A DNA stretch of 64,000 nucleotides. Source: Chryseobacterium sp. Marseille-Q5410 (GTDB lineage Bacteria > Bacteroidota > Bacteroidia > Flavobacteriales > Weeksellaceae). The stretch is from positions 1,178,001 to 1,242,000 of the forward strand of contig CAMPOT010000001.1 in the NCBI GenBank assembly GCA_946892665.1, given 5' to 3'. Position numbers and translations under genes: made by a program. Of the stretch, positions 52,698 through 56,076 are shown one piece after another. Below the pieces are notes generated by a model, which did no database searches, was not told the DNA's origin, and was given only the letters and a program-made list of their open reading frames with translations. The first letter of the stretch is position 1; each line of letters starts with the position of its first letter.

Positions 52698-54269
52698 ATG
52701 ACAACAACCGCAATTATTATCGGTATTGTTTGCGTTATTTTAGGAGCTGTTATTGGGATGTTATTCTCTAAAAGCTCGCTTAACGCAAAAGCAAAATTCA
52801 TCATTCAGGATGCTAAGAAAAATGCCGAAAACCTTATAGAAAAAGCCAACGTACAGGCAGAATCCATTAGAAAGGAAAAACAGCTCCAGGCCAAAGAAAA
52901 GTTTTTGGAATTGAAATCTCAGCACGACGCCGATATTCAGGCAAGAGAAAAAAAGATGCAGGATGCTGAAAAAAGAATTAAAGAGAAAGAAAATAAGCTT
53001 AATGATGAGTTGAGCAAAACCGGGAAACTGGAAAAAGATTTGGACAGACAAATTGCCGAGTATCGCAAGAAACACGAAATTCTGGAGAAAAAGCAACATG
53101 AGTTAGATATTGCTACTTCCCAAAAAGTAGAAATGCTAGAAAAAATAGCAAATTATTCTGCCGAAGAAGCAAGAAATGAATTGGTAGAATCGCTGAAGGC
53201 AGAAGCGAAAACAAGAGCTCAGGCGCACGTTCAAAGCATTATGGAAGAAGCTAATCTTAACGCAAAACAAGAAGCTAAAAAGATTGTTATTCAAACCATT
53301 CAGCGAATCGGAACCGAGCAGGCAATTGAAAATTCAGTGTCAGTTTTCAATATCGAATCAGACGAGGTAAAAGGTAGAATTATCGGTAGAGAAGGTAGAA
53401 ATATCCGTGCTTTGGAAGCTGCTACAGGGGTCGAAATTATCGTTGATGACACCCCAGAAGCGATTTTGCTTTCATGTTTTGATCCTGTAAGAAGAGAAAT
53501 CGCAAGACTTTCCCTTCACCGTTTGGTAACCGATGGAAGAATTCACCCGGCGAGAATTGAAGAAGTGGTAGAGAAAACCAAGAAACACATCGAAGAAGAA
53601 ATCATCGAAGTGGGTAAAAGAACTGTTATCGATTTAGGCGTACACGGACTTCACCCGGAACTGGTGAAAATCGTAGGACGCATGAAATTCAGATCTTCTT
53701 ATGGCCAAAACCTTTTGCAACACTCCAGAGAAGTAGCGAATATCGCTGCAACGATGGCTGCAGAACTGGGGTTAAACGTAAAAATGGCAAAAAGAGCAGG
53801 TTTGCTTCACGATATCGGGAAAGTTCCGGAACAGGAGTCCGAACTTCCACACGCGCTTCTTGGAATGCAATGGGCCGAAAAATATGGTGAAAATCCTGAA
53901 GTGGTCAACGCAATTGGTGCACACCACGACGAGGTGGAAATGACTTCTTTGCTGTCGCCGATTATTCAGGTTGCCGATGCGATTTCGGGAGCAAGACCTG
54001 GAGCAAGACGCCAAGTTTTGGAATCCTATATCCAAAGGTTAAAAGATTTGGAAGCAGCAGCATTAAGTTTTGATGGAGTTTCCAGCGCTTATGCAATCCA
54101 GGCGGGACGTGAGCTTCGGGTGATGGTTGAAAGCGGGAAAGTAAATGACGATCAATCTTCTCAACTTTCTTATGATATTTCAGAAAAAATTCAGAATGAA
54201 TTGACCTATCCAGGGCAAGTTCGAGTAACGGTAATCCGCGAAACCAGATCAGTAAATATTGCGAGATAA
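52698..54269 (+). CDS. rny: Ribonuclease Y
   Basis: 523 aa. N-terminal transmembrane helix (residues about 4-22), a long Lys/Glu coiled coil to about residue 200, KH domain ([32 protein letters not shown]), then HD domain ([23 protein letters not shown]) and C-terminal part. A membrane-bound endoribonuclease that starts mRNA decay. Its terminator is split by the IS element 30 bp downstream; the gene itself is intact. Confidence 0.96.
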
Positions 54270-54284
54270 TTTCCAGCTATCGAT

Positions 54285-54298
54285 AAAAAAAACCTTCC
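54285..54298 (+). terminator. Left half of the split rny terminator
   Basis: AAAAAAAACCTTCC. Its pairing partner is at 56063-56076, beyond the insertion sequence. Confidence 0.8.
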
Positions 54299-54306
54299 GG
54301 GAAATC
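54299..54306. repeat. 8-bp target-site duplication, left copy
   Basis: GGGAAATC, identical to 56055-56062. This was the loop of the rny terminator. Confidence 0.85.
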
Positions 54307-54361
54307 GAGGCCACTGAAAAACCGTATCAATTTTAGGATTTATGGTTTTCGGTCATTAACT

Positions 54362-54404
54362 AAGAGCTTATTACAGGAGTTTAAATTCTGTAATGAGCTC
54401 TTTT
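54362..54404 (+). terminator. Bidirectional hairpin at the left end of the IS
   Basis: AAGAGCTTATTACAG (54362-54376) pairs with CTGTAATGAGCTCTT (54388-54402), one G-T, followed by a T run to the right. It can stop rny transcripts and the leftward transposase mRNA. Confidence 0.75.
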
Positions 54405-54500
54405 CCTTTTTTTGAAGTTTTGATTTTATCGGGGGTATGAGGCTGCTTTTGGCTTAAGCATTGCCCGTTTTTAGATGTATTGGTTTTTTGCCCTTCCCTT

Positions 54501-55949
54501 TCAGATTAATTTCAGAATTCTCTTCAAATTGACTGCGAAAATAGCCATCGCTCCCTGCATCTGCATATTTTCTAGGCCATAGGATGTTGCTTTGCCGTAT
54601 CCGTGGGCGTTTTTAAGTTCGCTGTTTTTCGCCTCAATCTTATACCGTTGCTTCGATTTCTCCCTGTAATAATCGCTTTCCTGAAAATCCATTTGATCCT
54701 GATGCATTTCTGATTTTATGGAGACAGAATAGGTCTTAGATTTTGCTCCATCTTTGTAACAGCCTTCTCTCATGGGGCATAATCTGCATTTTTCTATATC
54801 AAAATAATATACATCCACTTGGTTTTTGCCAACATTCTTTTTGTTTTGGCGGGCTTTTCTTGTCGCCAGATGTCCTGCGGGACAAACAAATCTGTCAGCA
54901 TCTTTGTTATAGTCAAACCGGTCTTGATCTTTTCTAAATCCCTGTGTAATAGAAGGATTCAGTTTTGCTACGATTTTAATGCTCTGATCACGGGCAATTT
55001 TCAGATTTTCTTTCCCGGAATAAGCGGCATCACCAATGATCGCCTCCACGTCCATTCCGTTTTCCTGGCTGATTTTTAAGAGTTTGGGCAGTTCTGGGCC
55101 GTCTCCTTTTTCGCCCGAAGTAACCACCGCCGCCGTAATAATGCGTTCCTCACTCATTGCCAGGTGTGTCTTGTAACCAAAAAATGGACTGTCAGCCGAC
55201 TTGTGTCCTGTTTTGGCATCCGTATCTTTTGAAAAAACCAACTGTTCGCCAGTGTCATTGGCTGTTTCCTTTAACAGGTTCAGTTTCTCCTTTACTGCCG
55301 GAATCGAACTTAGGGAGGGCTCGTTTTCAATAGATTTTTCAAGCTCTTTGCAGTAGGCTAATTCTTTGTTCAAATCATTTTCAACATTCTTGGATGGCAT
55401 TTTAGACTTAAACTCTTCGTCAAACTGATAAACTGTTTTGCGAAGTAACTTGGAACGTTCCCTAAGCACTTCCAGCGCCGAAAAAGGGTTTGATCGGGAC
55501 AAGGTATGCGTGGCATCCACAATGATGGATTTGCTTTTTATGATGCCTTTGTCAATAGCTATTGCGACGGTTTTTCCTATCAGCAAATTCAATAAATCGG
55601 TGTCCTTCAAACGCAGTTTTCTAAATTTAGTGAGGGAACTGGGATTGATCACGTCCTCTTCCGGAGCCATTTCCAAAAAATATTTGAACGACATATCGAA
55701 CCGCGAACGCTCCACAACGTCCACATCAGAAAGGGTATAAATACTTTTAAGCAAAAGATATTTAAACATGCGGATTGGACTTTCGGCATTACGACCATTA
55801 TTTAAACAATATTTGTTCAAAAGTTCATCATAAATGAAGGAGAAGTCAATCAGCTCGTTAATTTTACGAAGAATATTCTCCTTTGGAATGATCAGGTTAT
55901 ATAAATCAGAATAGGCACTAAACTGAACTCTTTGCTGCTGTACTAACAT
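54501..55949 (-). CDS. IS1182-family transposase
   Basis: 482 aa, full length. DUF772-type N-terminus (SPIRMFKYLLLKSIYTLSD), and DDE residues likely in IIVDATHTLS, AIIGDAAYSGKENL and RYKIEAKNSELKNAHG. A cysteine cluster CPAGHLATRKARQ... CRLCPMREGC resembles the zinc-binding stretch of this family. Frame intact, so the element may be active. Confidence 0.92.
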   Translation of the reverse strand: MLVQQQRVQFSAYSDLYNLIIPKENILRKINELIDFSFIYDELLNKYCLNNGRNAESPIRMFKYLLLKSIYTLSDVDVVERSRFDMSFKYFLEMAPEEDVINPSSLTKFRKLRLKDTDLLNLLIGKTVAIAIDKGIIKSKSIIVDATHTLSRSNPFSALEVLRERSKLLRKTVYQFDEEFKSKMPSKNVENDLNKELAYCKELEKSIENEPSLSSIPAVKEKLNLLKETANDTGEQLVFSKDTDAKTGHKSADSPFFGYKTHLAMSEERIITAAVVTSGEKGDGPELPKLLKISQENGMDVEAIIGDAAYSGKENLKIARDQSIKIVAKLNPSITQGFRKDQDRFDYNKDADRFVCPAGHLATRKARQNKKNVGKNQVDVYYFDIEKCRLCPMREGCYKDGAKSKTYSVSIKSEMHQDQMDFQESDYYREKSKQRYKIEAKNSELKNAHGYGKATSYGLENMQMQGAMAIFAVNLKRILKLI

Positions 55950-55981
55950 CTATAAATGATTAATTTACAGATTAAATATAC

Positions 55982-56022
55982 AAAAAAAGGAGCGAAAACA
56001 TTACTGTTTTAACTCCTTTTTT
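55982..56022. terminator. Hairpin at the right end of the IS
   Basis: AAAAAAAGGAG (from 55982) pairs with CTCCTTTTTT (to 56022), with an inner AAAAC/GTTTT. It lies upstream of the transposase and would insulate it from outside transcription. Confidence 0.6.
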
Positions 56023-56054
56023 CTGATTGCCCAGAAGACTTTTTCAGTGACCTC

Positions 56055-56062
56055 GGGAAATC
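56055..56062. repeat. 8-bp target-site duplication, right copy
   Basis: GGGAAATC, identical to 54299-54306. Confidence 0.85.
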
Positions 56063-56076
56063 GGAAGGTTTTTTTT
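56063..56076 (+). terminator. Right half of the split rny terminator
   Basis: GGAAGGTTTTTTTT. Joined to 54285-54306 it rebuilds a hairpin with loop GGGAAATC. Confidence 0.8.

What the first reader, a model, noticed from the sequence alone, without database searches (positions are those of the whole stretch)
54285..56076. Insertion sequence placed exactly in the loop of the rny terminator
Removing the 1748-bp IS and one 8-bp duplication (GGGAAATC) rejoins AACCTTCC and GGAAGGTT with T runs into a perfect bidirectional terminator whose loop is the duplicated sequence. The IS brings its own hairpin terminators (54362-54404, 55982-56022), so it replaces the one it breaks. This suggests that the element seeks hairpin loops, a low-cost target between convergent genes. 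Loop-targeting elements are known in general; whether this IS1182 group does so I cannot say.
Basis: partly seen in the sequence, partly recalled or inferred. Interest (0 to 1): 0.7.

Follow-up and report, generated by a model that had tools for sequence, protein, structure and literature searches.

The report
Mobile element that targets terminator loops
A small bacterial jumping gene inserts again and again, in distantly related bacteria, into the middle of hairpin signals that end transcription, duplicating about the length of the hairpin loop and carrying hairpins of its own.

Summary
The window holds a 1748-bp IS1182-family element whose 8-bp duplication is the loop of the rny terminator. 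The host genome has eight identical copies; all eight sit in hairpin-terminator loops with 8- or 9-bp duplications. Of four sites searched in relatives, three have natural empty sites that match; the fourth had no counterpart. Among 78 clean sites (Bacteroidota and Bacillota, transposase identity down to 59%), 73 carry an A-tract left and a T-tract right at fixed distance from the cut, and 55 have a complementary inner stem. In three genomes tract spacing predicts sites better than the stem, and strong stems without spaced tracts were not hit; elsewhere three hairpins without tracts were. So the target is the short bidirectional terminator, probably read mainly through tract geometry, with the stem's own share unsettled. 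Most relatives carry hairpins near at least their 5' end. Hairpin targeting by this family is known: IS1272 replaces hairpins without duplication. Loop duplication was drawn as a hypothetical pathway; here it is the usual outcome in a clade. A distant branch duplicates whole hairpins. New variant of a known kind.

The parts
54307..56054 (-). insertion sequence, IS1182 family, 1748 bp (strand = that of its transposase gene)
   Evidence: 15-bp terminal inverted repeats and flanking 8-bp duplication; 8 identical copies in the genome
54501..55949 (-). transposase gene, 482 aa, DDE type
   Evidence: NCBIfam NF033551 transpos_IS1182, 358.5 bits against cut-off 270; Pfam PF13751, PF05598, PF01609 above cut-off
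54307..54321 (+). terminal inverted repeat GAGGCCACTGAAAAA
   Evidence: similar ends in relatives down to about 59% transposase identity
56040..56054 (+). terminal inverted repeat TTTTTCAGTGACCTC
54299..54306 (+). target-site duplication, first copy (GGGAAATC) = terminator loop with its closing pair
   Evidence: a single copy is present in the empty sites L101 and L103
56055..56062 (+). target-site duplication, second copy (GGGAAATC)
54285..54298 (+). left half of the broken rny terminator; its A run covers positions 7-14 outside the duplication
   Evidence: tract profile over sites
56063..56076 (+). right half of the broken rny terminator; its T run covers positions 7-14 outside the duplication
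54362..54402 (+). terminator-like hairpin carried by the IS downstream of the transposase gene; its T run faces transcription coming from rny
   Evidence: 17 pairs, 5 G-C; in the ungapped scan a 3' hairpin of score 10 or more is found in 35 of 63 elements, but the window's own type scores only 4 there
55983..56022 (.). hairpin with A run and T run carried by the IS upstream of the transposase gene
   Evidence: inverted repeat I5; score 15.5, and 54 of 63 elements have a 5' hairpin scoring 10 or more
52698..54269 (+). rny (ribonuclease Y), whose terminator is the target
   Evidence: TIGR03319, 635.7 bits
56093..57637 (-). convergent gene: protein with T9SS sorting and choice-of-anchor J domains
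   Evidence: TIGR04183 and NF038128

Best explanation
The element belongs to a clade of IS1182-family insertion sequences whose transposase picks short bidirectional intrinsic terminators as targets. It appears to read a two-fold symmetric DNA pattern: an A-tract about 9-12 bp to one side and a T-tract about 9-12 bp to the other side of an 8- or 9-bp staggered cut, with a GC-rich stem between tract and cut. The staggered joining spans the hairpin loop, so the loop becomes the target duplication and each half of the terminator ends up on one side. The element brings hairpins of its own near one or both ends, which probably restore termination. Shown: position, duplication, tract geometry, complementarity, natural empty sites, recurrence. 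Inferred: that the transposase itself reads this pattern on DNA, that the stem helps, and that the carried hairpins terminate.
For: All 8 copies in the genome sit in terminator loops with 8- or 9-bp duplications. 143 loci gave a transposase match: 95 had an exact 7-12-bp duplication, 30 none, 18 lacked a readable end; 81 distinct, 78 after dropping three next to another copy's end. Duplication lengths of the 78: 59 of 8 bp, 18 of 9, 1 of 7. Tract score 6 or more of 8 in 73 of 78, against 2.8-3.1% of all positions and 3.9-4.8% of intergenic positions in 400 kb of each of three host genomes; inner stem 5 or more in 55 of 78, against 15-16% of intergenic positions; of the 73 tract-bearing sites 51 have such a stem, against 17-23% of tract-bearing intergenic positions. 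Arm-swap control: mean stem 11.46 against 8.00 (sd 0.21, 200 shuffles, 55 sites, L016 still included). Tract cover on both sides in 62 of 78 targets against 60 of 368 intergenic hairpins, or 60 of the 121 of these that have tracts on both sides at any distance (targets measured from the duplication's centre, hairpins from their axis). For 38 sites of three genomes: no site among 167001 background positions with tract 6 or less of 12, including 2648 of the 3429 strong-stem positions. Of 26 copies without exact duplication and with both flanks, 24 have a half-terminator tract on both sides (either of two offsets allowed). Natural empty sites at three of four loci searched. The same terminator is occupied one base apart in two species, with ISs 0.6% apart and flanks 5-8% apart.
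Against: Three sites in other genomes are strong hairpins without spaced tracts (L070, L080, L081), so tracts are not always needed; two more fall short on tracts, L170 with and L021 without a stem. In the upper four of five bins, intergenic positions matched by a position weight matrix have about the same hairpin content as targets (0.35, 0.67, 0.93, 1.00 against 0.47, 0.50, 0.93, 1.00); only the lowest bin differs (0.14 against 0.62). In the three-genome pooled fit the stem adds almost nothing once GC of the inner positions is in the model (chi2 0.8; with tract alone 8.5), and the binned rates are not monotonic (at tract 9-10: weak stem 10 of 1709, middle 1 of 586, strong 9 of 206), so the stem's own part is not proven (the G000 fit did not converge). 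In G036 only 8 of 20 sites have an inner stem of 5 or more. L296 on a phage contig (53% identity) has a 9-bp duplication with neither tract nor clear hairpin (read by eye); L246, a broken 29%-identity relative, likewise. Target choice was not tested experimentally.
Confidence: 0.75

Rival explanations
1. Pure structure recognition: the transposase attacks an extruded cruciform or single-stranded hairpin at the 5' edge of each loop (pathway c of Wan et al. 2017), and the tracts only reflect what terminators look like.
For: Arms are complementary beyond composition; three targets are strong hairpins without tracts (L070, L080, L081); in the 40 sites of other genomes the stem adds to tract and GC against the unmatched three-genome background (chi2 37); a distant IS1182 branch duplicates exactly one hairpin whatever its length, 20, 20, 21, 24, 27 and 35 bp, which points to structure; IS1272 is reported to need an inverted repeat, not a sequence (PMC5678879).
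Against: In three genomes strong-stem positions with low tract score took none of the 17 strong-stem insertions although they are 2648 of 3429 such positions; 11 of 19 tract-bearing G036 sites have a weak inner stem; the duplication is nearly fixed at 8-9 bp.
Confidence: 0.22
2. Survivorship: the element inserts anywhere and only insertions in dispensable intergenic DNA between genes survive.
For: The host genome's eight sites lie between genes, and carried hairpins would lower the cost.
Against: Survival cannot place the cut within 2 nt of the best hairpin axis in 46 of 54 sites nor set the tract register; the main controls are themselves intergenic.
Confidence: 0.02
3. Recruitment by transcription: the transposase is guided by paused or terminating RNA polymerase or by exposed DNA at terminators, not by the DNA pattern alone.
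For: Targets look like working terminators: one directly follows a tRNA gene, and changes on both arms keep a stem in relatives (L306 and L314).
Against: The two-fold symmetric tract register does not need transcription; sites with weak stems would be expected to terminate poorly.
Confidence: 0.1

Closest known systems
IS1272 and TnSha1 (IS1182 family, staphylococci)
   Same: Family; hairpins, often terminators, as targets; little primary sequence (PMC4923244, passages; PMC5678879, abstract, sections 22, 24, first part of 29, and passages).
   Different: There the hairpin is deleted or replaced and no target duplication is made; here the stem halves stay and the loop is duplicated (8-9 bp). 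A/T-tract spacing was not mentioned in what I read. I did not fetch IS1272 itself.
ISBspe1-like and ISEfa7-like branch of the IS1182 family
   Same: Family name in the annotation of several members; hairpins as targets.
   Different: 20-25% transposase identity to this element in the members measured; terminal repeats begin CAG; a whole hairpin stands at each side, in six machine-checked cases the same one duplicated (20-35 bp).
REP-targeting insertion sequences (ISPsy8 and others, PMC1525189)
   Same: ISPsy8 inserts at the symmetry axis of a predicted hairpin (passages).
   Different: The target is one repeated REP sequence with a 3-bp duplication; here targets share geometry, not sequence.

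Membership tests
IS1182 family | transposase of the family above curated cut-off | tested here: met
   NF033551, 358.5 bits against 270
IS1182 family | one transposase ORF with a DDE domain, terminal inverted repeats | tested here: met
IS1182 family | palindromic targets in at least some members (Siguier 2015, as quoted in PMC4923244 and PMC5678879; original not seen) | tested here: met
IS1272-type inverted-repeat replacement | no target duplication | tested here: not met
   8- or 9-bp duplications in 8 of 8 own copies
IS1272-type inverted-repeat replacement | target hairpin removed on insertion | tested here: not met
   both stem halves remain when compared with natural empty sites L101, L103, L304, L305, L315, L316 (L315 has changes in the right arm)
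Loop-duplicating pathway c (Wan et al. 2017 model) | duplication corresponds to the loop | tested here: met
   8 of 8 own copies: duplication centre within 2 nt of the hairpin axis
Loop-duplicating pathway c (Wan et al. 2017 model) | target is a cruciform at the time of attack | not testable with these tools
   needs biochemistry; weak-stem sites in G036 speak against a strict need
REP-targeting ISs | target is one repeated REP sequence | tested here: not met
   the eight targets differ in sequence

The most novel reading that the evidence does not exclude
The IS1182 family holds all three outcomes that a hairpin-directed transposase could give: hairpin replacement (IS1272, published), whole-hairpin duplication (ISBspe1-like branch) and loop duplication (this clade). 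This clade has turned hairpin choice into a ruler that measures A- and T-tracts around the cut, finds intrinsic terminators genome-wide, and swaps the host terminator for terminators that it carries.
Probability: 0.42. Interest if true: 0.68.

Novelty: new variant of a known kind. Interest (0 to 1): 0.55.

Why it matters
It gives a natural data set for how a DDE transposase can choose DNA shape or structure rather than sequence, shows an outcome that had been drawn as a hypothetical pathway (loop duplication) as the usual one in a widespread clade, and suggests how an element can be nearly harmless: use the 3' ends of transcription units and bring replacement terminators. If true, copies of these ISs mark terminators, and 8-9-bp or hairpin-long duplications in this family can be read as terminator hits.

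Tried and rejected
Chance: rejected. Pure hairpin model: weakened, not excluded. Self-avoidance (the element's own hairpins being too long to be targets): 51 of 63 elements have no target-like position in their own flanks, but 12 do, so I do not claim it. A relative of the transposase among solved structures: none at E up to 1; no structure prediction was run. Viral contigs: no relative with the ISBspe1-like query; two loci with the S. simulans query, one on the same contig as L298. Of 19 distant loci looked at (L246-L255, L298, L301, L321-L327; L302 is the same copy as L298), 13 have CAG ends and hairpins; L246, L322, L323, L324, L325 and L327 show no complete hairpin on both sides by eye and are outside the claim. 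Of the ten loci only the two near-complete ones (L254, L255) were examined. Fourth empty-site search (L001 site): 2 of 36 genomes matched, one of them the host itself, and no empty site was obtained. At the L002 site L319 aligns without a clear terminator, and L318 and L320 do not align across the junction; at the L005 site L307-L310 do not. The first logistic fit had not converged; one search repeats it with Newton steps, where the G000 fit (8 sites) still fails, so only pooled and binned numbers are used.

Literature: five searches answered; seven timed out and one look-up of a review timed out. Passages of three more papers (PMC3196728, PMC10383233, PMC5395568) gave nothing on terminator loops; they do list an IS1182 element, ISCaa15, with 4-bp direct repeats in two copies, and a truncated ISSmi2 in an island with a 7-bp repeat. 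ISfinder and TnPedia were not available. So I cannot say that loop duplication in this clade is unpublished; it was not in the listings and passages that I saw.

Full report
What is there. The window carries a 1748-bp insertion sequence at 54307-56054 with 15-bp terminal inverted repeats and the duplication GGGAAATC on either side. Its gene, 54501-55949 on the minus strand, is an IS1182-family DDE transposase (NF033551, 358.5 bits against a cut-off of 270). The half-hairpins AAAAAAAACCTTCC and GGAAGGTTTTTTTT lie outside the duplications. rny ends at 54269 and the gene of a T9SS-sorted protein converges from 56093.

The empty site is real. In a genome 95% identical over rny (G018, locus L101), and in another (G009, L103, 90%), the sequence after rny is the uninterrupted hairpin with one GGGAAATC; L102 (92%) has the same stem with another loop. 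One search printed 29 of the 30 fetched rny loci (36 genomes matched); by eye the 28 that are not the host all have a hairpin after rny, of varying sequence. Three further sites of the host were searched in the genus: the L005 site has empty counterparts in L304 and L305, the L002 site in L316 (exact core) and L315 (changes in the right arm), and changes on both arms keep a stem in L306 and L314; the L001 site gave none.

It is not a single case. The host genome holds eight identical copies. All eight are in loops of hairpins that fold on both strands (RNA energies -10.6 to -21.7 kcal/mol), with 8-bp duplications in six and 9-bp in two. The same terminator is hit in G000 and in G018, whose copy is that of Chryseobacterium sp. 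FF12, one base apart; the two ISs differ at 11 of 1748 positions while the flanks differ by 5-8%, which suggests two separate insertions.

Relatives. A scan of genome contigs gave 79 loci, the best 80 of 284 being kept, and genome searches gave more. Of 143 loci with a transposase match, 95 had an exact duplication, 30 had none and 18 lacked a readable end; after removing duplicates 81 remained, and 78 after dropping three beside another copy's end (L016, L150, L155). Hosts are Bacteroidota and Bacillota; the lowest identity among the 78 is 59%. Of the 30 copies without exact duplication, 26 have both flanks, and 24 of these have a half-terminator tract on both sides, as expected if recombination between copies has swapped flanks.

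What marks a target. In the first 54 sites, A is found in 43-51 of 54 at positions 9-12 left of the duplication, and T in 43-51 of 54 at positions 9-12 right. Over 78 sites, 73 reach 6 of 8 in this tract score, against 2.8-3.1% of all positions and 3.9-4.8% of intergenic positions in 400 kb of each of three host genomes; 55 of 78 have an inner stem of 5 or more, against 15-16% of intergenic positions. Swapping right arms between sites lowers the mean stem score from 11.46 to 8.00 (sd 0.21, 55 sites). The best hairpin axis within 25 nt lies within 2 nt of the duplication's centre in 46 of 54 sites.

Hairpin or ruler. Intergenic hairpins with tracts at the right distance on both sides are 29 of 105 (G000), 17 of 145 (G036) and 14 of 118 (G201), against 62 of 78 targets. 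Among 38 sites of these genomes no insertion fell at tract scores of 6 or less of 12, although 2648 of 3429 strong-stem positions are there. At equal tract score strong stems are hit more often than weak ones (9 of 206 against 10 of 1709 at score 9-10; 7 of 40 against 3 of 65 at score 11-12), but middle stems break the order (1 of 586; 5 of 26). Against a stem effect: positions matched by a position weight matrix have about the same hairpin content as targets in four of five bins, and with GC of the inner positions in the model the stem adds nothing in the pooled three-genome fit (chi2 0.8), though it does for the 40 sites of other genomes against this unmatched background (chi2 37) and for all 78 (chi2 14.5). 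Against a strict need for tracts: L070, L080 and L081, in other genomes, are strong hairpins with tract scores of 2-3 of 8. I conclude that spaced tracts are the better predictor, that the stem probably helps, and that only an experiment can part them.

Carried hairpins. Of 63 distinct elements, 54 have a 5' hairpin and 35 a 3' hairpin of score 10 or more; the mean best score in coding stretches of the 5' region's length is 4.3, and no length-matched control was made for the longer 3' region. The window's 3' hairpin is missed by that ungapped scan but is listed by the terminator scan.

Place in what is known. IS1272 and TnSha1, of the same family, target hairpins but delete them and leave no duplication (PMC4923244, passages; PMC5678879, abstract, sections 22, 24, first part of 29, and passages). 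Wan et al. [quoted passage not shown] The clade studied here behaves as (c). A distant branch (20-25% identity in the members measured) behaves as (b): of 13 elements with terminal repeats beginning CAG, six have the same complete hairpin on both sides with direct repeats of 20, 20, 21, 24, 27 and 35 bp, two more (L249, L253) do by eye although the script mis-set their ends, and five have two different complete hairpins.

Exceptions. L296 (53% identity, phage contig) and L246 (29%, broken gene) have 9-bp duplications with neither tract nor clear hairpin, read by eye. Five of 78 sites fall short on tracts, four of them with a stem and one (L021) without. These limit the claim to the clade and to most, not all, insertions.

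Noticed in passing
L247, L250, L254, L301, L321, L326 (and L249, L253 by eye): A distant IS1182-family branch carries one complete hairpin, duplicated, on both sides of the element (direct repeats of 20-35 bp in the six checked by script); L248, L251, L252, L255 and L298 have two different complete hairpins.
   Followed up: partly
L004 and L009 (G000 and G018): The same terminator is occupied in two species with the insertion point shifted by one base.
   Followed up: yes
L016, L150, L155 (G036): Copies lie directly next to another copy's end, sharing the duplication between them.
   Followed up: no
26 copies without exact duplication, e.g. L028, L043, L171: 24 of 26 have half-terminator tracts on both sides though the two duplications do not match, which suggests rearrangement between copies (or assembly joins).
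   Followed up: partly
L022, L163, L079: Duplications that differ only at their first base; may be repair or mutation at the joint.
   Followed up: no
L008 (G000): The insertion lies in the terminator that follows a cluster of four tRNA genes (Thr, Tyr, Gly, Thr).
   Followed up: partly
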